From Omphalotus guepiniiformis (Eukaryota > Basidiomycota > Agaricomycetes > Agaricales > Omphalotaceae), in the NCBI GenBank assembly GCA_028554645.1, contig JAQOOI010000037.1, positions 62,001 to 126,000 on the forward strand: a stretch of DNA of 64,000 bases. The letters are read 5' to 3'. The notes under the pieces are model-generated. The model saw only the letters and a program-made list of their open reading frames with translations, made no database searches and was not told the DNA's origin. The translations under genes and the position numbers were made by a program. The stretch's first letter is position 1, and every line of letters begins with the position of its first letter. This document shows positions 6,714-32,729 of the stretch, piece by piece.

Positions 6714-7553
6714 TAGATCCTGAGTAGTTGACGTCATTCAGCATACCTATGCTCCCTCCTCAAATTATCACCCCATGCCTTAATCTTTATTGTATATCCT
6801 CTTGAAACGTATCAAATGAATTTGCTTATGTATTGGAATAGCTCAACTTGAAAGAGATTGCGAAATCGCGTGACACTACTGTGCTTGCTTATTAAAGCAA
6901 CAAGGCTGCTATCTGAATTCCACATCATGTGTATGACTGGTGGGGTGTTGATTTCGGCGATGGTCTTTTGCTGCTGGAAGTCATAACACACGCCGTCCCG
7001 TCATAAAAAAACCTCGTTGGATTGCACAAGGGGGGCTTGATGGAATTGACGCGCGTGTCTCGATATGAATTGTGAAAAGTTGGATTTTCCCAATCGGCTA
7101 AAAATCAACTTCGTTTCGTGTTGTTTTAAATCGAGAAATGCGCTCAAAGCAAATGCAGCCTCGTTAATTCACATTAATTTAGCACGATGTACATTCTTCG
7201 CAATAGATTGGGTAATATCCGAGTCAATTCATATTCGCATGTATCATATGGATTATCGGGTCATGTTGAATGATGTTGGGATTTGTGGCACCACTGTAAA
7301 TACAACATAGTGCGGGGTGCTTTTCCTACTAATTCCTCCTTTCCCAATCTCCTCCAATTCTTCGCGCTTCCCGGCGCAAGCCCGATGACGCAAGCTCAAA
7401 GATAGTGGCTAATCATGAGTTATCGCATGAAAAGGTACGGAACAAGTGGACCAAGCTTCTTTTTTGCATCTGCTGCCCGGCGAGAGGCTTCTCGAAAGCA
7501 CTAAAAGAACTAGTCAGGCAGTATCTAGGGCACGCAGTAAGTAAAGGACTTAC
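6714..7553. other. AT-rich intergenic stretch, nothing recognised
   Basis: There is no convincing open frame, RNA gene or repeat. It is more AT-rich than its flanks. Confidence 0.5.
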
Positions 7554-7773
7554 CTCAGTCTCGGCGCTATCCTTGACCTCATCCCAGTAATTTTTGAATT
7601 CAGCCGTAGTACCATTTGGGTTTTTCTGAACCCACTCCTTCGCACAAAGGTTCCTGTGGCAGTAGCATAGTAATGCGGTGACTAGCGCTGGAACGGTCAG
7701 CGCCGTTGGAGTGGCCGGTGCAGAAATCGTCGCTGAAGTCTTCGCAACGTCAACGGAGACATCGACGAGAGTC
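7554..7773 (-). pseudogene. Orphan exon of an unrecognised gene
   Basis: An open minus-strand frame runs from an acceptor (CGCACAG, at 7774) to a donor (GTAAGT, at 7553). It encodes an Ala/Thr/Val-rich stretch followed by CAKEWVQKNPNGTTAEF and KNYWDEVKDSAETE. The second half resembles a charged globular segment seen in Agaricomycete hypothetical proteins; I cannot assign it. No joinable exons are apparent downstream, and just upstream lies a piece of coatomer alpha. A chimeric remnant is therefore likelier than a gene. Confidence 0.4.
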
Positions 7774-7883
7774 CTGTGCGAAAACGTCGGCTATAGCAAT
7801 AGGAAACTCGGAGACTAAACCCGGAAAGCCAATCTCAGTCTTTTCTATACCACTCGCATTCAAACTGCAAACAAGACGCATAA

Positions 7884-20012: not shown

Positions 20013-21372
20013 GTAGTGTATTGACTTAGTTCTGTGCGACCTAGTGCTGCGAATCTTATGTTTTTAAGACTCGAAAAACATCAGTGCCTGTCAACTGACT
20101 TTGCCTCTCACGCGAAGCTTTTGCATTGCAACCACGGGACTTCAAGAATTGATATATAGATCTACAGGTTCAATGCAGGAATGTAGTACAGATTATAGAG
20201 AGAAAGAAAGATGCGAGTCATAGGCACTAAGCAACGAATCTTGAAATTAAGACTTTATCAAGTAGATCGAAGGAAGAAGTCGATATCCGGGAATGGGAAA
20301 TCGGGGCCTGGCTTGAGCTGGCGCTTTTCGCTCTCAGTCAAGGACGCTAGCCATGTTTGTGAATAAAAATTTGCCGGCAAATTCGCTACAGCCTGCCTGC
20401 AACTACGAATGGGATGACGAGGGCGCTGACGGATATGAGGTTCAGAGCCTGGCGCCCGATTACCGTAGGTAGAGGTCTTAAAGGATTTTTCGCTGATATG
20501 AGAGAAAATGCGGAGTAGGTCGGGGCTCCTCCACTCTAGCGAATGTACGTGGAACGGCTTGCGAGCTCTTGGGGCTTTGTCGTCGTCGCTCTCATCAGAG
20601 CTCATACCTTGCGGGCCAACTACCATCAAGGCTTGGGAAAGGGAGTACCACCATTCTTCCTCACTTGTGCCGGTGGAATCTTGTCTGCGGTCAATGACAT
20701 ACTGCCTCCTGTCTTTAAAGATCTGAAGCTATGGTTAGCGAAGAAGTCCCGAAGGGGGAAGAGGACTTACCGTGTTTCGGCGGTGATCTCTGCGAGCGCG
20801 GCACAATTGGTATTTCTCGAACTTCAATGCGCGCTCACGCGCCTGTTCAGGCGTTTCATCATCGAAGGGAGTGTGACGACTGAGGAGTGCCTTCAGCGTC
20901 TCAATCCTCTGGAGAAAATGGCTCTTGATCGCTTCCTCGCGCTCGAAATCTTCAACATCCACCCCCGCACTTTTACCTTCACTCCTCTGGCGCTGGTTAA
21001 AGAGGGTAAGGAATTCTTCAGAGAGATGCTCGTTCCAAGCATGTTTGGGCTTCTCCCAGTAAATGGGGACATGAAATCTACTCAACCCTGGATGGTCAAG
21101 GTTACCGAAGAACCAATCCTTGACATCGTCCGAATCTGCGTATAGGTCGTTCTTTTGCATTGACTCCAACAAATCTTTATCGTGCTCTATGCCCAGAAGA
21201 TTGTTCATGAAAACTCGAATCTCTGTCTGCAAACGAATTGTCAAAGTCTAACTCTGGTGGAGGCATAAGGAGAGAATATTAACTCACGAGTAGTTCGGTG
21301 CGAGCTTGATCGCGATACACGTCCGGCCTGCGCACTTGAAACCTACCCGTTCTCTTCTTCTTTGATCGGTTC

Positions 21373-21910
21373 TGTTACGGCTATGCGCCGGAACTCCGGG
21401 TCAGACCTCCGGTTTCTAGAACTTCTTTGATTTCTTCTTCCTGACATCTATTCAATCTTTCCATATGGTTCACTTTACAAATTCACGCTTTCCTATTCGC
21501 TTTTATTATTCTTTTCTACTCCGGACATCCGAACGTCGCCAACGTTCCATGTTCTTATTGTTCTTTAGTTTCATTCTTCTCACACTATTGTTTTATTACT
21601 CCGAGTATCTCCGGTAGAATACTCATATAAATACTTCACGCTTATACTGTATATACTTTAGTTTTAAATCAATTTAGTCTCCGGACTACTATCTTGAATT
21701 TCTCGTCTGAACTCTCATCTCTCCTCGGACTTCCAATCCGGGTGCAGCACGGGGGGCAGTATCGAAATAATACTGCCTACCGGGTGAAGTCTTGTTGCCG
21801 GAGCAATTCGGAGCTCCTGGTTCTCCTGTCTTGTTCCTTTCGACTCTTTCTCTCGGACCTCCTCGGAGGTCCTCGCTCTCTTACCGTCTCTAGTCCGCAC
21901 GGACTTAACA
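21373..21910 (+). repeat. 5' LTR
   Basis: 538 bp with TGTTA...TAACA ends. A TATAAAT at 21626-21632 could serve U3. The predicted transcript start 25-35 bp downstream falls at about 21655-21665. Confidence 0.95.
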
Positions 21911-21912
21911 GT

Positions 21913-21922
21913 ATTTAAAACT
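21913..21922 (+). promoter_or_regulatory. Candidate self-priming primer-binding site
   Basis: ATTTAAAACT, 2 bp after the 5' LTR, is the exact reverse complement of AGTTTTAAAT at 21660-21669 within the LTR, right where transcription should begin. No initiator-tRNA-type TGG site follows the LTR. This matches the Tf1/sushi self-priming arrangement, in which the RNA 5' end primes minus-strand synthesis. Inference from complementarity only. Confidence 0.5.
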
Positions 21923-21944
21923 CTTCTCTGTGCTGCTATTGATC

Positions 21945-23567
21945 ATGTCACAACATCCTACAAACCCCTTACTTGAGGCTTCACAGTCTCACGCACCATT
22001 TTACCAAGGTCGCGATCCCAATGCTCTTCGTGAGCGGCGGAGATCCGGTCTTTACTCAGTTCGCGCAAGCGAATTCGTCTCACCAAGCCGAGGCTCACGC
22101 CTTTCTCAACAACCTCCGGTTTTATCAACATTATTTTCACCAGGTCATTTGCCTGGTTTTCGAAATCCTCCGGTAACTCCGACTCGTCGAACTTCCACAA
22201 TGCCGGGAGTTTTACCGATACATGAAGACATGTCCGACACTGCTCCTGAAGAGCAGAATGACGAAGACGATGACATTATCGCAGCGGCGACGGAAGGAGA
22301 GGCTGGTGATCAGCCAGAAGGAATAGGAGGTAATGGTGGGGATCCTGGAGAAGGCGATGAAGGTAATGGTGGTGGTGGACCAGGCCATGGAGGTCCGGGT
22401 GGACCTGGCGGGCCTGGAGGACCAGGTGGAAATGGTGGCGGTGGACCGGGTGGACCTGGGGGTCCTGGAGGACCTTCCGGGGGTACCGGTGGCACCGGTG
22501 ATGAAGATTTTAGGCGGATGATGCAGGAGTTTCTTACCACTAGCATGGCTGGTTTTACTAACATGGCTAGGGCTTTTAACACTCAGGCATCCGCGGCTCC
22601 GGAGAGCAAATCACGCTTGAAGGAGCCGGACGTTTTCGATGGATCAGATCCGCGGAAGCTCCGAAATTTCATCATTTCTCTGGCCCTTCACCACTCCGAT
22701 CGGCCTCAATATTTTTCCTCCGACGATCGAAAGATCACATTTGCGCTCTCCTATTTGTCTGGATCGGCTCTGGAATATTTCCAGCCAGAGCTGCTGAACC
22801 CGGATCCGGACGATCCTCCGGCATGGATGGTCAATTATCAGGCCTTCATGCAGGAGCTGATGGAAAATTTCGGAGAGTACGATATGGAAGCGGAGGCTGA
22901 GCAACGCCTCAGTGGGCTCAAAATGAGGGATACGGATCGAATCCGTAATTACAATGTAAAGTTCGGAGCCTACGCAGCGATGGTTCTTTGGGATCAAGCT
23001 GCTTTACGTTGGGCCTATTATCAAGGTTTGCCATCTCGTATTAAGGACGAACTAATGCGGATCGAGTATCCGAAAACCTATCAGGGGACCCGGAAAGAGG
23101 CCACCAAGATTGACGCTCGCCACTGGGCTCGCTCTGCTGAAAAGCAGCGAGAACAGCGAACGTCCGGTGGAGGCTCCGGTAACTCCGGAAGTGGATCCTC
23201 TACTTCACAATCCGGTTCGCAGAAGAAGAAGAGTGGCAGTTTCAACAAGCCCTCCTCTTCTTCTAACAACCGCTCGAACTCCGGAAACTCCGGATCTGGT
23301 TCTGGTTCTGGCTCCGGTTCTAACTCCGGCAAGACAAATTCCTCTTCGACCACGCCAAAACCATACGCGGATAGGCTAGGGAAGGATGGGAAGTTGACGC
23401 AGGCGGAGAAGGACAGGCGCCGGAAGTTGAAGTTATGTTTCTTTTGTGGAGGTAATCATACTATGGATAATTGCGATAAGCGGAAGAAGTTGAACGAGGC
23501 TCGTGGACGAGCTTCGGAGGTAACTTCGGAGGACTCCAAACCGACTCCAAAGGAGTCGGAAAAATAG
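21945..23567 (+). CDS. gag: Gag polyprotein, 540 aa
   Basis: ATG 21945 is the first ATG in frame after the LTR apart from an unlikely upstream start at 21930. After an acidic region there is a long Gly/Pro-rich tract (about residues 125-190), then the retrotransposon capsid-like region (EPDVFDGSDPRKLRNF, FALSYLSGSALEYFQPEL). A Ser/Gly-rich linker and a CCHC zinc knuckle CFFCGGNHTMDNC (CX2CX4HX4C) follow. It forms the virus-like particle and binds element RNA. The stop overlaps the pol frame. Confidence 0.9.
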   Translation: MSQHPTNPLLEASQSHAPFYQGRDPNALRERRRSGLYSVRASEFVSPSRGSRLSQQPPVLSTLFSPGHLPGFRNPPVTPTRRTSTMPGVLPIHEDMSDTAPEEQNDEDDDIIAAATEGEAGDQPEGIGGNGGDPGEGDEGNGGGGPGHGGPGGPGGPGGPGGNGGGGPGGPGGPGGPSGGTGGTGDEDFRRMMQEFLTTSMAGFTNMARAFNTQASAAPESKSRLKEPDVFDGSDPRKLRNFIISLALHHSDRPQYFSSDDRKITFALSYLSGSALEYFQPELLNPDPDDPPAWMVNYQAFMQELMENFGEYDMEAEAEQRLSGLKMRDTDRIRNYNVKFGAYAAMVLWDQAALRWAYYQGLPSRIKDELMRIEYPKTYQGTRKEATKIDARHWARSAEKQREQRTSGGGSGNSGSGSSTSQSGSQKKKSGSFNKPSSSSNNRSNSGNSGSGSGSGSGSNSGKTNSSSTTPKPYADRLGKDGKLTQAEKDRRRKLKLCFFCGGNHTMDNCDKRKKLNEARGRASEVTSEDSKPTPKESEK

Positions 23568-26500
23568 TCTGCAGCCCAGATGCCTCGACACGAAATTTGG
23601 GTTGCGTTGGCCACGATCGTGTCATCTCCGAGGTTACTCTCAACGCGTCCGCTCTTTTACACCACTCTGATTCGCTTGTATTACCACTTTGTATCAATCG
23701 GAGCTCCTCGGGCCTCAAGGGCCTCGTTAGGGAGCCCGAAAATGAGTCTACTTCATTTTTGAAATTTTCTACGTTACTTGATTCTGGTTCTTCTCATAGT
23801 TTCCTCGATTCAAAATTTGTTCATGATTATTTTCTTCCGGTAACTCCGGTTCCTCCGGTTCGACTACGCCTTCTTGATGGTTCAACCGCTTCTTCATTAA
23901 TTGAAGAGCTTGTTACTTTACCTGTTCAATTTCCTTCCGGGGAGACCTTGTCTCTTGACTTTTTTGTCACTTCTTTGGATTCGTCTTGTAAAGCTGTTTT
24001 AGGATACAACTTTCTCACCCGCTACAACCCGTTGGTTGACTGGGTCACAGGAGTTATTTCATTCCGAAACACTGATCAAACAGTTCCATCTCCCATTCCG
24101 CAGGCTGCATCTTCAACTCCGGTTGAGGTAGCGTCCATCGACGCATCTCCGACACCTACCTCTCGTCCTCGGAAGGCGAACTTTCCCTTTGAACCCATCT
24201 ACTCATATCCAACCGTCACGCAAATGGGAGCAAGAATTTCGGACCCGTCGGATCCGGATATTGCTTTTATTGGTGCTGCAGCATTCATACGGGCTTGCAA
24301 GGAAGCTGGACAAGATCCCATTGTGATCTACGGACGTCCGGTTACCTCCGTTACTGGTAACGCAGCATCTATCCATTCACCTGTTGATCTCTCCGGAATA
24401 CCGGAAGAGTATCACGATTTTGCTGACGTTTTTGATGAAGGTCTTTCAGAAGTCTTACCACCGTACCGCCCTTACGACCTTAAAATCGACTTAGAGGACG
24501 GTGCTGAACCTCCCCTCGGACGTGTTTACCCACTGTCCGCAAAGGAACTAGAGGCCCTTAGGGCTTTCTTGGACAAGCATCTCGCCAACGGATTCATTAC
24601 GACCTCTTCATCTAAACATGGAGCGCCGGTATTGTTTGTTCCTAAAAAGAATGGCTCACTCCGTCTCTGTGTAGATTTTCGTGGCTTGAACAAGATTACC
24701 CGCAAGGACCGGTATCCTTTACCATTAATTTCCGACCTCCTCGACGCTCCTAAAAAGGCGAAAATCTATACCAAGCTTGATCTTCGACATGCTTACCACT
24801 TGGTCCGGATCGCCGAGGGAGACGAATGGAAAACTGCTTTCCGCACCAGATACGGCTCTTACGAATGGAAGGTCATTCCCGAGGGACTAACCAATGCTCC
24901 GGCGGCTTTTCAACGGTTTGTAAATGAAATATTTGCTGACTTACTAGACGTCTACGTTATTGTCTACCTTGACGACGTTCTAATCTATTCGGACAACCGA
25001 GCAGACCATCGAAAACATGTCCGCGAGGTTCTCCGACGCCTCCGGAAGCACGGCTTATTCTGCAATCCCAACAAATGTGTCTTCGACTCCGAAACTGTTG
25101 AATACCTCGGTTACATTCTGTCACCGGACGGTCTTCGGATGTCCGAGGAGAAGGTTAAGGCCATCGTCGATTGGCCCCTTCCTCGACCCGGACGAATCAA
25201 AGACATTCAGTCCTTCCTTGGTTTCTGTAATTTCTATCGCCGTTTCATCTTCAACTATTCTGGTATCGTGGTTCCACTAACTCGTCTTACTCGCAAAGGT
25301 ATTCCTTGGAAATGGTCCGAGGAGTGTCAACATTCTTTTGATTCACTTAAATCTGCTTTTCTTTCCGCTCCTGTTCTAACTCACTGGGAACCTGACCGAC
25401 AGATAATCCTGGAAACGGACGCCTCGGACTACGCCATAGCGGCAATTCTTTCACTTCGTATGGACGATGGAGAAATCCATCCAGTCGCATTTCTTTCTCG
25501 GACCCTTCATGCCGCCGAGCTCAACTACGACACCCACGACAAGGAGCTCCTCGCCATCTTTGAATCTTTCCAACACTGGCGGCATTACTTGGAGGGCTCC
25601 GCAACGCCGGTCGACGTGGTCACAGATCATAAGAACTTGGAGTACTTCAGTACTACCAAGGTCTTGACACGCCGACAGGTTAGATGGAGTGAATACTTGT
25701 CTCACTTTAATATGGTAATCCGGTTCCGACCGGGACGCCTCGGAGCAAAACCTGACGCTCTGACTCGACGTTGGGACGTCTACCCAAAAGAGGGAGATAG
25801 CACTTACGCTACGGTCAATCCACAGAATCTGAAACCGATTTTCACCCAAGAACAACTATCGACTTCACTTCGAGCAACTTTCCTAGAAGGTCCGGTCCTT
25901 CGCGCTAGTATCATTATGGATCTCGACAAACTACATCAGTCGATCCGGGAATCACTAGCTTCAGACTCGGAGTCCAAGGCAGGTATGTCACTTGCCAATG
26001 ATGATGCTAACAAACGTTGGACTTTAGACAACTCCGGACAACTCCGGCTCGACGGTCGCATCTATGTTCCAGACTCGGGTGACCTGCGGCTTCAGGTACT
26101 TCGATATTTCCATGACCACCCACTTTCAGGACACTTTGGGCAGAACCGGACACTCGAGGTCATCCGAAGACAGTATACCTGGCCTCGGATCCGAGAGTTC
26201 GTCCGGTCCTACGTGCAATCCTGCACTGTTTGCGGTCGCAACAAGAGCCGTAGACACCGTCCTTATGGTCTTCTGCAACCTCTCCCAGTTCCGGAACGTC
26301 CTTGGGATTCCATATCCATGGACTTCATTGAACAACTTCCGAACTCTCATGGCTTTACAGCCATTCTAGTCGTGGTAGACAGGGCATCTAAGCAAGCCAT
26401 TTTTATTCCTACTTTTGACACCATAACCTCCGAACAGCTAGCTCAACTTTTCGTCCTTCACGTATTCTCCAAACACGGTGTTCCTCGGCATGTCACCTCC

Positions 26501-27403
26501 GACCGGGGCTCCGAGTTTGTCTCGCAGTTTTTTAGGGCTTTAGGTAAAGCGTTGCAGATGGAGCTTCATTACACCTCCGGTTATCATCCGGAGGCTGATG
26601 GACAAACTGAACGAGCTAACCAAACTCTGGAACAGTACATCCGAATTTATTGCTCTTACCAACAGGATGACTGGGATGAACTCTTGGCCATTGCAGAGTT
26701 TGCCTACAATAACGCTCCGAACGGCTCCACTGGCATTTCACCCTTCTTTGCCAACAAAGGTTATCACCCAAACCTTTCAATACATCCGGAATACGACCTC
26801 GCATCCGACCGGGCTCGACAGTTTGTGGTCAACCTTGACGAGCTCCACACTTTTCTACGCAATGAGATTACTCTTGCTCAGACTCGTTACAAGGAACAAG
26901 CTGACCGGCGGAGGTCCTCGGCTCCGGAATTTCCCATTGGCTCAGAAGTATATCTTAACGCTAAGCACATTCGTTCTACCCGTCCTACAGCTAAATTTTC
27001 CGAGAAATATCTAGGACCATTTAAAATTCTAGCTCGACCTAGTAACCTTGCCTATACACTACAGCTTCCGGACTACCTCCGGTCCGTACATCCAGTATTC
27101 CATGTCTCTCAACTCGAACCAGCACCTCCCAACACCATTCCTAACCGCACTCAACCTCCGCCTCCGCCGGTTGAGGTCAACGGTGAAGTTGAATACGAGA
27201 TTGCTCAGATACTGGATTCCAAGCTGGACCGGAGACGCCGAAAGTGTCCGCTATTGTACTATGTGCAATGGCTTGGTTATGAAGGGACGGATGAAGAATT
27301 TTCATGGGTCTTAGCTGATGAACTCACAGCTGAAGACTACATCCAGGAGTTCCATGTCCGATATCCGGACAAACCTGGACCTCTGTCGAAGTTGACAATC
27401 TGA
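23558..27403 (+). CDS. pol: Pol polyprotein (PR-RT-RH-IN-chromodomain)
   Basis: The pol frame is -1 to gag and already open upstream of the gag stop. GGAAAAAT at 23558-23565 is a plausible slip site, so no ATG is needed. Motifs in order: aspartic protease LLDSGSSHSF (about 23774), RT with VIPEGLTNAPAAFQRF and YLDDVLIYS (24965), RNase H ETDASDYAIAA (25411), integrase zinc finger HPLSGHFGQNRT with CTVC, and DDE residues in SMDFIEQLP, TSDRGSEFVSQFF and HPEADGQTERANQT. A C-terminal chromodomain (EYEIAQILDSKLDRR, YYVQWLGYEGTDEEFSWV) defines a chromovirus and probably guides integration to modified histones. No internal stop. Confidence 0.93.
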   Translation, partial: GKIVCSPDASTRNLGCVGHDRVISEVTLNASALLHHSDSLVLPLCINRSSSGLKGLVREPENESTSFLKFSTLLDSGSSHSFLDSKFVHDYFLPVTPVPPVRLRLLDGSTASSLIEELVTLPVQFPSGETLSLDFFVTSLDSSCKAVLGYNFLTRYNPLVDWVTGVISFRNTDQTVPSPIPQAASSTPVEVASIDASPTPTSRPRKANFPFEPIYSYPTVTQMGARISDPSDPDIAFIGAAAFIRACKEAGQDPIVIYGRPVTSVTGNAASIHSPVDLSGIPEEYHDFADVFDEGLSEVLPPYRPYDLKIDLEDGAEPPLGRVYPLSAKELEALRAFLDKHLANGFITTSSSKHGAPVLFVPKKNGSLRLCVDFRGLNKITRKDRYPLPLISDLLDAPKKAKIYTKLDLRHAYHLVRIAEGDEWKTAFRTRYGSYEWKVIPEGLTNAPAAFQRFVNEIFADLLDVYVIVYLDDVLIYSDNRADHRKHVREVLRRLRKHGLFCNPNKCVFDSETVEYLGYILSPDGLRMSEEKVKAIVDWPLPRPGRIKDIQSFLGFCNFYRRFIFNYSGIVVPLTRLTRKGIPWKWSEECQHSFDSLKSAFLSAPVLTHWEPDRQIILETDASDYAIAAILSLRMDDGEIHPVAFLSRTLHAAELNYDTHDKELLAIFESFQHWRHYLEGSATPVDVVTDHKNLEYFSTTKVLTRRQVRWSEYLSHFNMVIRFRPGRLGAKPDALTRRWDVYPKEGDSTYATVNPQNLKPIFTQEQLSTSLRATFLEGPVLRASIIMDLDKLHQSIRESLASDSESKAGMSLANDDANKRWTLDNSGQLRLDGRIYVPDSGDLRLQVLRYFHDHPLSGHFGQNRTLEVIRRQYTWPRIREFVRSYVQSCTVCGRNKSRRHRPYGLLQPLPVPERPWDSISMDFIEQLPNSHGFTAILVVVDRASKQAIFIPTFDTITSEQLAQLFVLHVFSKHGVPRHVTSDRGSEFVSQFFRALGKALQMELHYTSGYHPEADGQTERANQTLEQYIRIYCSYQQDDWDELLAIAEFAYNNAPNGSTGISPFFANKGYHPNLSIHPEYDLASDRARQFVVNLDELHTFLRNEITLAQTRYKEQADRRRSSAPEFPIGSEVYLNAKHIRSTRPTAKFSEKYLGPFKILARPSNLAYTLQLPDYLRSVHPVFHVSQLEPAPPNTIPNRTQPPPPPVEVNGEVEYEIAQILDSKLDRRRRKCPLLYYVQWLGYEGTDEEFSWVLADELTAEDYIQEFHVRYPDKPGPLSKLTI

Positions 27404-27608
27404 TCGGACGTCCTCGGACGTTGATGGTCTTGGTGTTTCTTTCTTTCTCTCTATCCCTTTTGCTCTCTCTCTTACTATCACGCTTATCTCGTTATAAAAA
27501 ACAGACATTTATTTATACAAAACAAAACAAAAGCTATCAAGAAAAACAAAACAAAAGACATATTATATACAAGTTCTTTTTCTTTTCTATCTACAACTCA
27601 TTCTCTAT

Positions 27609-29090
27609 TCATGTCCTACTCGGACCTCCTCGCTCTTCCCGTCGTCTTTCAATTTCTTTTCGCCTTTCAGCGAACATCTTTCGCTCCTCCGCGGTATAGC
27701 GAGTATTCGTTTCCTCTTCTTCTCTGATCCTCTCTGCCGGTACTTCTCGGAGCCCCGTACAGATCTCGTCCACCTGCTCAAAAAACTCAGTCAACTGAGC
27801 GGCCTCTCCGCCCAGTACTCCTTGCACCATCCTACTGTTCATGACACTAGGCAACGTCGGCTCTCGCACCTCCGGACGGGCATCCGATCGCTCTGCTTGG
27901 TCGCGCTCCCAAGCAAAGTGTAATTCCCGGCCCATTTCGGCAAGCCGGATCGAGGCGTTGATTATCGCCTGGTTCATGATATAGGACCCCTGAACAGGAG
28001 TCGTGGCACCCATTGCCATTCCCAAGGCAAGGGCCCAGTCGCGGGTCCGTTCCGCCAAGAATACACCCCAACTAGAGACCTCTTCTCTAGTTGAGTAGAC
28101 GGCGGCGTCAACGTCATCGATCCGCCGGTTCACCAAGTCCAAGTCGGAGAGCTCCGCGGAGTCCCGAGGCTCTCCTGCTCGTCCCTCTACTTTCTTCTCC
28201 AACTTAGCTAACCTAGAAAGGATTTCTTCATTTTGCTGCATAAGCAGCTCGAGGGAAGCCGGAGAAAAAGAAGTGGTGGTGCTCGGAGCACCGACTCGCT
28301 CCGAAAACGAGCATTTTGATTTTTGTTTCCTGCATTCGTCGCAGGAGGTAGACTTGGTGTTCCGAGGGCGCCCGGAACAGTGGTATCGTCGTGCCCGGCA
28401 CTGCAGGCAGGCGGGTCGGGAGCTAGGAGCTCCGGTTTCTTCTTCTTCGTCCTCTTCATCTGAAATGACAATAGACTAATATTTTGTTATAACTCAATTC
28501 CAATACTGGTATTCATTTACTTACCGCTGAAATCACATTTTTTCTCTTTTTCTTAGGAGACCCACCGGCCTCCGGTTCTTCTTGCGCCTTCCGTTTTCCA
28601 TCCCTCTTCTCTTTCCTTCTCCTCGCCTCCTCGGCCTTCTCAATAGCCCGCCTGGCTTTCTTCTCCTCCTCCGCCTCACTTTCCTCCTCGGCCCTCCGGT
28701 TCTCCTCATCCAGAATCCTTTGCGCCTCCTCAACTTCTCTCCTCCTCCGCTCTCGCTCCTCCGCCCTCCACTTTTCTTGCGCCTCCTGACGCCACTCCTG
28801 AATCCTCCGGACTTCCTCTGTCCACTCATTCTTTGCCTTATCGTACTCAGCCCACTCCCTATCTTCTTCCTGTTCAACTAAAAGAACATTGAGTATCGGA
28901 CATCCGCAGACAGGATAAACTCACCCAAGGCAATAGCCACTTTTATTCTGTCAAACTCCTCCGCATTCTCCGGTGTCTTCCTTCGAGGCAAGGCTGGTTT
29001 GACCCTTGGCTCGGGTTCCGGACGTCCGAAGGGCGCCGGTAAGGGGTACTCCTCCTCAAAGCTGGGGGTGGTGGCGCGGTTTGATGACAT
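27609..29090 (-). CDS. Antisense cargo gene: coiled-coil Zn(II)2Cys6-type protein, 461 aa
   Basis: Exons on the minus strand are 28925-29090, 28525-28877 and 27609-28475; introns of 47 and 49 nt are GT-AG and phases join. ATG 29090 gives MSSNRATTPSFEEEYPLP. Residues about 57-160 form a highly charged coiled coil (VRRIQEWRQEAQEKWRAEER and similar), followed by a nuclear localisation signal SPKKKRKN. Exon 3 has an acidic run and then cysteines 196, 199, 206, 218, 221 and 228, spaced C-x2-C-x6-C-x11-C-x2-C-x6-C. That is the GAL4-type binuclear cluster. A second coiled coil follows (LLMQQNEEILSRLAKLEKKVEG), as in dimeric Zn2Cys6 regulators. It lies wholly between pol and the 3' LTR. Family relatives are unknown to me. 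Confidence 0.8.
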
Positions 29091-29300
29091 CGTTGTGTTG
29101 GGCCTACGGGGTGGATTTGCGCGGGGTTGAGGAACTTAGAGGTTTGCAGGCTAGGCTTTTATATCTATCCAGTGTTTGGCAGGATTTGGTCGATGTTGAA
29201 AATTCGGACACATCTCACTCCGAGGGGCAGGGTCGGACTTGGGACTTCGGACCTGGGACTTGGGACTTGGGACTTAGGGTTCTTGAGGGCAAGAACCCTA

Positions 29301-29312
29301 AGAGGGAGATAC
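29301..29312 (+). promoter_or_regulatory. Polypurine tract
   Basis: AGAGGGAGATAC directly precedes the 3' LTR and is the expected plus-strand priming site. Confidence 0.7.
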
Positions 29313-29850
29313 TGTTACGGCTATGCGCCGGAACTCCGGGTCAGACCTCCGGTTTCTAGAACTTCTTTGATTTCTTCTTCCTGACATCTATTCAATCTTT
29401 CCATATGGTTCACTTTACAAATTCACGCTTTCCTATTCGCTTTTATTATTCTTTTCTACTCCGGACATCCGAACGTCGCCAACGTTCCATGTTCTTATTG
29501 TTCTTTAGTTTCATTCTTCTCACACTATTGTTTTATTACTCCGAGTATCTCCGGTAGAATACTCATATAAATACTTCACGCTTATACTGTATATACTTTA
29601 GTTTTAAATCAATTTAGTCTCCGGACTACTATCTTGAATTTCTCGTCTGAACTCTCATCTCTCCTCGGACTTCCAATCCGGGTGCAGCACGGGGGGCAGT
29701 ATCGAAATAATACTGCCTACCGGGTGAAGTCTTGTTGCCGGAGCAATTCGGAGCTCCTGGTTCTCCTGTCTTGTTCCTTTCGACTCTTTCTCTCGGACCT
29801 CCTCGGAGGTCCTCGCTCTCTTACCGTCTCTAGTCCGCACGGACTTAACA
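29313..29850 (+). repeat. 3' LTR
   Basis: 538 bp; no difference from the 5' LTR was found by eye. It is followed by GGTTC, the target duplication. Confidence 0.95.
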
Positions 29851-32729
29851 GGTTCGGAGACCTGAACTCACGGAACTGCTCGTGTAACTCGGAGTTTGAG
29901 GCGTCAATCTTGCGCACGGAATCCGCCAAATCCGTCACTGAATTACAAAGCTTCTCATGAGACCCAGCAAACTTCCCCAGTGAATCAGCGAGCTTGGTCA
30001 GTGACTCAGAGATGCTTCCCAGAGTCGGATCTGACTGGGTGGATGATCCTGCCCCTGAGGCCTGAGTGCCTGCATTAGATTGCGAAGTTGCCGGGCCCGT
30101 GCCATCAGGAGATGGCTGCGCAGTAGGAGATGGCTGTGCAGTAGGAGTTGCGGCAGGAAACGCGTGGAATGAAGAGGTTGGGGTGGCGGGAGATGGTTGG
30201 ACAGATGGAGTTGGTCGGGCAAAAGGAGATGGTTGGGTAGAAGAAGAGGGTCGGGGAGTAGGAGACGGGGGGGTGCCAGAGGACGAGCCTTGATTACTCG
30301 CAGGAGAAGGTTGGGGTGTAGATGATTCGTTCGTGGTGGTACGTGGTTGGATAGCTGGTTGACCGGCAGAAGAAGGTCGGGGGGGAGAAAGAGACGCTGG
30401 AGTTCCAGGAGACGAGCCTTGATTTGGAGAAGGTCGGCCTGCAGATGATTCGTTCATGGCGGGGGGTGGTTGGATAGCTGGTTGACCGACAGAAGAAGGT
30501 CGGGGGGGAGTAGGAGACGCTGGGGCTCCAAGAAACGAACCTTGATTTGGAGAAGGTCGGCCTGCAGATGTTTCGTTCGTGGTGGGGGTGGGTTGGATAG
30601 CTGGTTGACCGACAGAAGAAGACGCTGGGGTTCCAGGAGACGAGCCTTGGTTTGAAGAAGGTTGGTTCGAGACATCGGGATTGTTTCGTTGCGGACGGCC
30701 ATCACCCCAGATCGCAGGCTGGCGTTGTTTGCGGACAGGCTTGCTTCCTTTATTTAAAAGACATCGCATAAGGTTGGTGCCTCTCCCCACCGGTTGCACG
30801 AAGGGAGGCTGGTGTATCAATTAGCACACGGCGTGATAGAAGAGAGGAAATCAACTTACAGGTGCGGCAGGTGCGGCAGGTTGTACTGGGTCGTCTCTTT
30901 GAAGGCCAGCACCGTTACTCCGATCGGGAGGATTGCTAGACGGCACCGCTGCCTCATCATCTACGTCCATAGTCTGCTGATCAATGTATCAACACAAGGG
31001 CATATTAGAAGAGGGAAATCAGCTTACATTCGGTCTTCGTGAATTGGGTGCGGCCGGTTGTACCGTGTCGTCTCTTTGAAGACCAGGACCGTTACTCTGA
31101 TCAGAAGTATTCCTAGACGACACCGCTGCCTCATCATCTACGTCCATACTCTGTGTCGTGCTATTTGCTGTCGCTAACGTCTCGAGACCGGCGATGGTGC
31201 CATCTGGTATGGAGTTGGTGACAGCAGCCCGATTTTCCTTCTCTAATTGACCAATTGTTTGCTGCATTTGCTGCAAGTTGAGTTGCAGCTCTCGAGCCTG
31301 CAGCTGACAGTTCTATGTCAGCCAAAACACCGTCAAGTGTGTGTTAAAGTGATATACCTCGTGTTGAGCGTCTCTTTCGGTCAGAGTTGCGGTCAGAGTT
31401 GCCTCCGCCTGTTGCCAGATCTCCTGCTGCAACTGTTCTCTCAATGCCGCCACCAGGTGCTTCATTTCGTTTTGCATCTTGTTTTGCATCTCGTTCTGCA
31501 TGTTCTCTTTTGCTGACACGAGTTGACTTATTTGCTGCTGCTGCGCTAGCAGCTGGGTGTCGAACGCTTGCTTTTGCTCCGCTAATTGAGCGACATACTC
31601 CTTTCTCTGCGAACAATTTACTCAGAAGAAGTTAGTGTAAAGAAAGGAAAATCGACATACCGCAACTTTCCTCATCTTTACGATCTTTAATGGGCTAGTC
31701 AATACATATATGAGGCAGCAAATGTAGAATGACTTACGTGCGTGTACCCATTACCGTCGCGATTTACAATGGTACCATCCTCCGAGTCAGTATCATTCTC
31801 GGTATTGCCATCATGCCCTCGTTTTGACAGTGTTGTTGGGGGTAGCGATGTCCCGCTGCTACTACCTGTTGGCTTTGGCAGCGGGCGGGGTCGAGCTCGC
31901 GCTGTCGTGTTCGAGGCGGTCGGAAAAGTTTTCAGTGGCCAGGTGGAGAGCGGGACTGGAGTCTTCAAAGAGGACAGGACTGGAGCAAAGACTGGCGTTG
32001 CTGGAGCCGGCGGTACCTGCGAGGAAGAGCTCGGCCTCGTGGAAGTCGGTACCGGAGCGAGGGTTGGTGCGGGCAATGCCTGCAGGGAAGAGCTAGAGTC
32101 CATCTGTGTTATAGACGGCGGGACTGGAGTGAAGGATGCGAGTGTTGAGGTAGCCGACGGCTGTGTTGCTGGAGTTGGCGATAGCTGTGAGGAAGGGTTT
32201 GGAGCCGGGGGGATGTCTGATGTCGTTGGTGCGGACAATGCCTGCGGGGAAGAGCTCAGAAGAGGGGGCATCTGTCCTATGGACGGCGGGACTGGAGAGA
32301 TTGGCGAGCTTATTGAAGTGAGGAATGGCTGCGAGGCGAGAGTGGCGGGTATATGAGGCAGTGGCTTATGATTCGAAGAGGCATTCGGAATGAGCTGCGA
32401 TTCCGAATCATAGTAAAGGGGCGGCATGACTACGCCTGAGAAGGGTGGACCACCATCTTCATCCACCGCCATGCGGTTGCTCTGGGCGCCCTGTTCAGGC
32501 TTGCAGGAATGCAAATGAGAAAGGAGCCGGTACAGCAGCCAGCAGAACACATACCCCAAGCCCTGGCGCTTCCATCTCAACATCATCTCGAAACGGACGA
32601 GTAACCATGTCGCGGAGATTGCGCATCATCGTGAACGCTGGGGATACTAATCGAAAAGGAACCACTCAAAAATTAGGAGCGAGTTATAACGTCGAAGGTA
32701 GGCGTCGTGGGACAACACCTGAATTACAT

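What the first reader, a model, noticed from the sequence alone, without database searches (positions are those of the whole stretch)
27609..29090. Chromovirus carries an antisense, intron-containing Zn(II)2Cys6 cargo gene
Seen: three minus-strand exons with GT-AG introns of 47 and 49 nt and matching phases give 461 aa. They combine a charged coiled coil, an SPKKKRKN nuclear signal and six cysteines with exact GAL4-type spacing (x2, x6, x11, x2, x6), all between pol and the 3' LTR. Known: introns in sense orientation are lost during retrotransposition, while antisense ones are retained; antisense ORFs are reported for some plant LTR elements. Inference: the element encodes its own nuclear DNA-binding regulator, perhaps acting on LTR promoters or host silencing. 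I am not aware of this arrangement in fungal Ty3 elements.
Basis: partly seen in the sequence, partly recalled or inferred. Interest (0 to 1): 0.92.

Follow-up and report, generated by a model that had tools for sequence, protein, structure and literature searches.

The report
Retrotransposon's backward-coded DNA-binding protein gene
A fungal jumping element carries, written on its opposite strand, a working-looking intron-containing gene for a DNA-binding protein, and the element's own DNA is unusually rich in the kind of short sequence such proteins are known to recognise, which suggests that the element makes a regulator for itself.

Summary
Confirmed. A 461-aa, two-intron gene lies antisense between pol and the 3' LTR of a young Ty3 chromovirus (LTRs 538/538 identical). 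It is real: 21 of 28 copies keep the spliced frame while intron lengths drift, dN/dS is about 0.1, and 26 of 26 copies whose pol match reaches its end carry it. Its zinc-cluster cysteines are invariant in 8 alleles. Relatives (31-49% identical) form a tandem array without gag or pol; one has the same intron phases, so host-gene capture is likely. New here: the gene is a mosaic, hypervariable cassette in otherwise near-identical elements, and the element is paved with CGGA/TCCG, the CGG-type half-site of zinc-cluster proteins. CGGA ranks first of 136 4-mers in gag+pol under two synonymous nulls, but shows no excess in two sister families without this protein. One sister family has its own, unrelated spliced antisense gene. 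The layout is known (plants; Boty brtn); the zinc-cluster, self-targeting version appears new. Expression and binding are not shown.

The parts
21373..21910 (+). 5' LTR, 538 bp, with 18 CGGA/TCCG sites (4.8 expected)
   Evidence: identical to the 3' LTR
21368..21372 (.). target-site duplication GGTTC, left copy
21945..23567 (+). gag (Pfam Retrotrans_gag and DUF4939 just above cut-off, Ty3_capsid below; a CX2CX3HX4C knuckle near the C-terminus, by eye)
23597..27403 (+). pol: protease-like region, RT, RNase H, integrase, chromodomain (residues 1200-1253)
28925..29090 (-). antisense gene exon 1 (ATG at 29090)
28878..28924 (-). intron 1 (47 nt here; 46-68 nt in the intact copies)
28525..28877 (-). 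exon 2: charged helical region and SPKKKRKN (28560-28537)
28476..28524 (-). intron 2 (49 nt; 49-50 nt in the copies)
27609..28475 (-). exon 3: zinc cluster and conserved C-terminal region, stop ending at 27609
28311..28409 (-). Zn(II)2Cys6 motif C196-C228; cysteines invariant in the 8 alleles compared
29156..29163 (-). TATAAAAG, 73 nt before the antisense ATG: the gene's probable own promoter, outside the LTR
   Evidence: present in 28 of 29 copies
29273..29302 (.). perfect 13-bp inverted repeat next to the polypurine tract
   Evidence: in 25 of 29 copies
29313..29850 (+). 3' LTR
29851..29855 (.). target-site duplication GGTTC, right copy

Best explanation
The element encodes its own sequence-specific DNA-binding regulator. 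A host zinc-cluster gene, probably a member of the tandem family still present in the genome, came to lie antisense between pol and the 3' LTR. Because it is antisense, its introns are not removed from the genomic (sense) RNA and survive retrotransposition, while its own mRNA, started at a TATA box just inside the 3' LTR, is spliced. The protein enters the nucleus, binds CGGA/TCCG sites spread over the LTRs, gag, pol and its own gene, and keeps element chromatin open or raises LTR transcription (self-targeted anti-silencing or activation, like the VANC proteins of plant VANDAL transposons). Shown: the gene, its selection, its presence in 26 of 26 copies with a pol end, invariant cysteines among alleles, array relatives, a site excess absent from two sister families, retention of sites at synonymous positions. 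Inferred: transcription, splicing, nuclear entry, binding to CGGA, direction of capture, and the positive sign.
For: Spliced frame kept in 21 of 28 copies with drifting intron lengths. dN/dS mostly 0.06-0.15 for pairs with dS above 0.2; ratio of means 0.11, mean of ratios 0.15 for pairs with dS above 0.05. Gene next to pol in 26 of 26 copies whose pol match reaches its end. TATAAAAG in 28 of 29 copies. Zn_clus hit; five cysteine columns invariant in an alignment with five array relatives, the sixth missing only where one fragment starts too late. CCGGA/TCCGG 89 in 7,940 bp of element against 66 in 55,522 bp outside. In gag+pol CGGA is first of 136 4-mers under a synonymous-codon shuffle (140 against 83.6, z 8.3) and under a synonymous plus junction-dinucleotide null (140 against 106.3, z 5.0). 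LTR 18 against 4.8. Under the same two nulls family B gag+pol has z -3.8 and 0.7, family C pol z 0.9 and -0.2. Within CGGA the diverged antisense alleles agree at synonymous third positions in 1506 of 1679 comparisons, 89.7% against 78.4% expected (rank 4 of 125 words). Each of 9 alleles tested keeps an excess of CGGA (z 3.0-5.4). 68 of the first 100 listed dense CTCCGG pairs in the genome lie in this family's copies or LTRs (my reading of coordinates and sequence).
Against: No RNA or binding data. That zinc clusters read CGG triplets is recalled knowledge; the exact site of this protein is unknown, and the Pfam score is near the cut-off. One array relative has shortened cysteine spacing and two array frames show no Zn_clus match. 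Only three families were compared, one copy each, so family specificity could be coincidence. CGGA was picked from a word scan, not predicted beforehand. In one search three words rank above it (ATAA, CCGG, AGCT), and the pairs are not independent. The site excess is moderate against the strictest null. The host array has a weaker excess (190 against 136). VANC motifs sit mainly in non-coding repeats (PMC5735166, passages), whereas here they are also in coding DNA. The sign of regulation is not determined by anything here.
Confidence: 0.55

Rival explanations
1. Same protein and same sites, opposite sign: it is a self-limiting repressor (copy-number control, or damping of LTR transcription), as HTLV-1 HBZ inhibits Tax-dependent activation.
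For: HBZ is an antisense-encoded, spliced regulator that inhibits Tax-dependent activation (abstract of PMC1459196). An antisense promoter next to the 3' LTR would also oppose sense transcription (TATA box; inference).
Against: A repressor that lowers its carrier's spread is harder to keep under strong purifying selection across copies, unless it protects the host or excludes rivals.
Confidence: 0.22
2. The protein acts on host genes (cargo that helps the host, or rewires it), and CGGA richness of the element is incidental.
For: Relatives sit in a host-like tandem array without gag or pol. CGG-type sites occur in many fungal promoters (recalled).
Against: CGGA excess is found in the element family carrying the gene and not in two sister families, and sites are retained among alleles.
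Confidence: 0.12
3. CGGA richness is a codon-pair or mutational habit of this lineage, unrelated to the protein.
For: Part of the excess disappears when junction dinucleotides are kept (z 8.3 falls to 5.0). Only three families compared, one copy each.
Against: It is also seen in the non-coding LTR (18 against 4.8) and, in pol, in all three codon frames and both strand readings, while CGGG-type words are depleted.
Confidence: 0.25
4. Only the antisense RNA matters (dsRNA, interference); the protein is incidental.
For: Antisense transcripts of retroelements can act as RNA (discussed in PMC7264820, passages).
Against: Differences fall on third codon positions (for example 14/4/75 at positions 1/2/3), and dN/dS is about 0.1.
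Confidence: 0.03

Closest known systems
brtn of Boty (Ty3 element of Botrytis cinerea; Zhao et al. 2011, seen only as cited in PMC7264820 and PMC8365987)
   Same: Additional gene antisense to gag-pol, between pol and the 3' LTR, in a fungal Ty3 element
   Different: The citing passages that I saw name no zinc cluster, introns, host relatives or self-directed binding sites for it; I could not read the original, and sequence homology was not tested
Antisense aORFs of plant elements (Grande gene23, RIRE2, Retand with TRP28; PMC7264820, PMC11963269, passages)
   Same: Same place and strand; nuclear localisation reported for Grande gene23; TRP28 predicted to bind DNA
   Different: Different protein family; the term intron occurs in the main text of neither paper; no target site reported in the passages seen
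HTLV-1 HBZ (PMC1459196 abstract)
   Same: Antisense-encoded, spliced regulator at the 3' end of a retroelement
   Different: bZIP; transcription starts inside the 3' LTR; here a TATA box lies between the ATG and the LTR; homology not tested
VANC21/VANC6 of Arabidopsis VANDAL transposons (PMC5735166, passages)
   Same: Element-encoded DNA-binding protein with a short motif dense in the cognate family (inferred here)
   Different: DNA transposon (recalled); motifs mainly in non-coding tandem repeats; anti-silencing shown there, not here; homology not tested
Fungal Zn(II)2Cys6 transcription factors (Gal4/Leu3/Put3 type)
   Same: Six cysteines with C6 spacing and basic residues; weak sequence match to LEU3 and PUT3
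   Different: Zinc cluster in mid-protein after a long charged helical region; 11 residues between the halves; Zn_clus is the only Pfam match, no fungal-TF middle domain

Membership tests
Ty3 chromovirus | LTRs with TSD, gag, pol in order PR-RT-RH-IN, chromodomain | tested here: met
   identical 538-bp LTRs, 5-bp TSD, Pfam RVT_1, RNase H, rve and Chromo above cut-offs; protease models below cut-off
Antisense aORF between pol and 3' LTR | Conserved antisense coding region there in most copies | tested here: met
Zn(II)2Cys6 proteins (PF00172) | CX2CX6CX5-12CX2CX6-8C, above Pfam cut-off | tested here: met
   21.8 bits against 21, narrow; cysteines invariant among 8 alleles; spacing range recalled
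Zn(II)2Cys6 proteins (PF00172) | Binds CGG-type sites | not testable with these tools
   only indirect: CGGA excess in this family
VANC-like anti-silencing system | The bound motif is dense in the cognate family and not in relatives | tested here: inconclusive
   CGGA excess in family A, none in B or C; three families only, and that CGGA is the bound motif is assumed, not measured
VANC-like anti-silencing system | Homology to VANC | not tested
   no comparison with a VANC protein was run; Pfam shows only Zn_clus
VANC-like anti-silencing system | Removes silencing marks | not testable with these tools
   no chromatin data
HBZ-type antisense regulator | Spliced antisense mRNA | tested here: inconclusive
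   splice sites and frame conserved; no RNA

The most novel reading that the evidence does not exclude
The antisense zinc-cluster gene is the swappable recognition part of a self-targeting anti-silencing system: captured from a rapidly diversifying host gene array, kept as several old alleles that recombine between otherwise uniform elements (balancing or frequency-dependent selection), and matched to CGGA sites that selection has written even into the synonymous positions of gag, pol and the gene itself. Antisense, intron-keeping regulators may be a common second module of such fungal chromoviruses, since a sister family carries a different one at the same place.
Probability: 0.3. Interest if true: 0.92.

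Novelty: new variant of a known kind. Interest (0 to 1): 0.76.

Why it matters
Antisense extra genes of LTR retrotransposons have long been described, and a 2020 review still calls their functions unknown (PMC7264820, passages). This one has a recognisable DNA-binding motif, a probable host source, strong purifying selection, introns that mark it as a separately expressed gene, and a candidate target site visible in the element's own DNA. That turns an open question (what are antisense aORFs for?) into one binding experiment.

Tried and rejected
Relatives outside this genome: the search for homologous proteins with residues 160-461 and with the six-member alignment A1 found none; viral-contig scans with exon 3 and with pol found none. 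The other collections are prokaryotic, phage, plasmid or E. coli and were not searched, so nothing is known here about other fungi.

Structure: a single-sequence AlphaFold model of exon 3 had pLDDT 47 and was not searched further.

Subtelomeric location of the array: no TTAGGG x4 in the assembly, so I say only that some of its blocks lie near contig ends (for example C1:2141-6232, C13:4663-8517).

dsRNA-only function and chance open frame: rejected by codon-position and dN/dS evidence. A uniformly faster mutation rate for the gene: rejected, because the window's gene is identical over 1482 nt to two copies (L002, L003) whose pol ends differ by 1.8-1.9%, while copies with pol ends 0.4-0.5% different (L017, L023, L024) have exons 6-13% different.

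Family B's avoidance of CGGA (z -3.8) did not survive the stricter null (z 0.7), so I claim only absence of excess. A direct-repeat spacing of 9 between CGGA sites (9 against 1.1) may come from Gly/Ser repeats in gag and is not used. DNA polymerase X-like frames (named by eye) downstream of the family C element are single-copy DNA.

No paper listed there describes, by title or shown start of abstract, a zinc-cluster gene antisense in a retrotransposon; that is not proof of absence.

Full report
WHAT IS THERE. The window holds a complete-looking chromovirus, 21373-29850, with identical 538-bp LTRs and a GGTTC duplication, gag and a pol with RT, RNase H, integrase and chromodomain. TATAAAAG lies 73 nt before the ATG, outside the LTR, and is present in 28 of 29 copies.

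IS IT REAL. The genome (G000, 42.5 Mb in 80 contigs) has 28 copies that could be examined, the window's own included; three other loci (one split gene, two fragments) were left out. 21 of 28 keep the spliced frame, 19 of them with the ATG; 7 of 28 are broken. In 25 of 28 the joined coding length is a multiple of three although it ranges from 1269 to 1392 nt; in the 21 open copies intron 1 is 46, 47, 48 or 68 nt and intron 2 is 49 or 50 nt, and GT and AG stand at both introns. The 19 different open coding sequences give dN/dS of mostly 0.06-0.15 for pairs with dS above 0.2; pairs with L018 or L019, whose exon 1 start is replaced, run to 0.21; ratio of means 0.11 and mean of ratios 0.15 for pairs with dS above 0.05, and the close pair L017-L023 has 0.27. 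Differences lie on third positions (14/4/75 for positions 1/2/3, L003 against L006). In 11 of the 13 pairs compared, dN/dS of the pol end is higher than that of the antisense gene. In 26 of 26 family A copies whose pol match reaches residue 999-1000 the gene lies beside pol (matched by coordinates by me; one search scored 46 of 682 candidates, so copy numbers are lower bounds).

WHAT THE PROTEIN IS. Pfam finds Zn_clus, 21.8 bits against a cut-off of 21; LEU3 and PUT3 are the best, weak, PDB matches (E 0.069-0.28). The six cysteines do not vary among the 8 alleles compared. In an alignment with five array relatives of 31-49% identity, five cysteine columns are invariant and the first is missing only where one fragment starts too late; one relative (L063:5887-6522) has three residues fewer between its second and third cysteine. 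The stretch IVISDEEDEEEE (residues 175-186) resembles a SUMO-interacting motif (recalled, untested); family B's protein has similar acidic IDL stretches.

ORIGIN. A protein search of the same genome finds distant relatives on several contigs (C15, C1, C4, C13, C78, C41, C5). On C15 at about 178-194 kb they form a tandem array of at least seven same-strand genes or gene remnants with no gag or pol match. Member 1 (L062:1838-3234), in its best-scoring gene model, has two introns in the same phases, 1 and 0. The window's exon 3 is 49% identical to member 1, while member 1 is 28-37% identical to the four other members compared. The simplest reading is capture of a host gene with its introns; the reverse direction is not excluded, and no tree was built.

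A HYPERVARIABLE CASSETTE. Against the window, copies differ by 0.4-3.5% in the pol end (L016 and L028, which align badly there, excepted) and by 0.2-7.1% in the LTR (L010, which does not align there, excepted), but outside the nearly identical L002-L005 the gene's exons differ by 2.8-26.7% each. The window's gene is identical over 1482 nt to L002 and L003, whose pol ends differ by 1.8-1.9%; L023 and L024 have pol ends 0.4-0.5%, post-pol spacer 0.5% and LTR 0.7% different, but exon 3 about 8% and exon 1 12-13% different. Sliding windows show mosaics. So divergent alleles of this gene are exchanged between near-identical backbones. dS in the gene is 2.2-8.3 times that of the pol end in the 13 pairs compared. 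Backbone sweeps with retained alleles, or selection for diversity, would both do this.

THE TARGET SITE. CCGGA/TCCGG occurs 89 times in 7,940 bp of element and 66 times in 55,522 bp outside; this word scan is where CGGA was first seen, so the motif was not predicted beforehand. Keeping protein and codon usage, CGGA is the most over-represented of 136 4-mers in gag+pol (140 against 83.6, z 8.3). Keeping junction dinucleotides too, it is still first (140 against 106.3, z 5.0). The non-coding LTR has 18 against 4.8. All nine antisense alleles tested have an excess (z 3.0-5.4). At synonymous third positions inside CGGA the 8 alleles agree in 1506 of 1679 comparisons (89.7%) against 78.4% expected; CGGA ranks 4 of 125 words, after ATAA, CCGG and AGCT, and pairs are not independent (the first 25 codons were dropped). 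In the whole genome CTCCGG-N0-20-CTCCGG has 281 matches against 140 for the reversed pattern; of the first 100 listed, 68 lie in this family's copies or LTRs by coordinate and sequence. Zinc-cluster proteins typically read CGG triplets (established knowledge, recalled). The array region has a weaker excess (190 against 136); the other blocks of the window have a deficit or no clear excess.

CONTROLS: SISTER FAMILIES. Family B (pol 52-53% identical; L064) has CGGA 10 against 25.7 in gag+pol (z -3.8), or z 0.7 under the stricter null. Family C (pol 45%; L068, pol only) has z 0.9 and -0.2. Family C has an LTR match about 225 nt after the pol match at C59 and about 120 nt after it at C19, so no room for such a gene in the two copies checked of five listed at 44-45%. 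Family B has a different antisense gene at the same place: four exons, 327-331 aa in the models used, no Zn_clus hit (228 residues of the last exon scanned) and a single cysteine in L064's protein, kept open in L064, L065 and L066 with dN/dS 0.30, 0.18 and 0.19; 10 of 10 family B pol matches listed have a match to it beside them on the opposite strand.

MECHANISM. Most likely the protein is a self-directed regulator: nuclear, binding CGGA sites over LTR and body, favouring element expression. Motif density as the basis of family specificity is what VANC21 shows in Arabidopsis (PMC5735166, passages). The sign is open; HBZ is the precedent for a damping role (PMC1459196 abstract).

COMPARISON. 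[quoted passage not shown]). Plant Retand elements encode antisense TRP28 proteins predicted to bind DNA (PMC11963269, passages). The zinc cluster, the conserved introns, the host relatives, the allele swapping and the family-specific site excess are what I did not find in the listings, abstracts and passages seen.

Noticed in passing
L064:6251-7402 (-): A sister chromovirus family has its own, unrelated antisense gene with three introns downstream of pol, under purifying selection and beside 10 of 10 listed pol copies.
   Followed up: partly
window 20735-21372 and 29851-30820 (-): The element sits in an exon of a minus-strand host gene with a Pro/Ser-rich, repeat-containing product; with the flanks joined the frame stays open across the site for about 30 codons, to a GTGAGT that looks like a splice donor. 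The antisense zinc-cluster gene has the same strand as this gene.
   Followed up: partly
L062:1838 to L063:7881 (contig C15): Tandem array of at least seven very divergent relatives; the ORFs at L063:3880-4824 and 6919-7881 show no Zn_clus match. Related blocks are listed on C1, C4, C13, C78, C41 and C5.
   Followed up: partly
C1:6161, C4:39430, C13:8446, C15:177889: A CTCCGG pair (CTCCGGTAGGGTGAACTCCGG) lies within the first exon of array member 1 on C15, and the same sequence occurs at the matching places of C1, C4 and C13.
   Followed up: no
window 29273-29302: Perfect 13-bp inverted repeat just upstream of the polypurine tract, kept in 25 of 29 copies; role unknown.
   Followed up: no
window 21373-21910 and 29313-29850: The 40 LTR matches scored (of 64 candidates) are 97-100% identical although many gene alleles differ at dS 0.25-0.5, a sign of homogenised or recently swept backbones.
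   Followed up: partly
window 21911-21950: The sequence after the 5' LTR shows no obvious tRNA primer-binding site by eye; self-priming as in Tf1-like elements is possible (recalled, untested).
   Followed up: no
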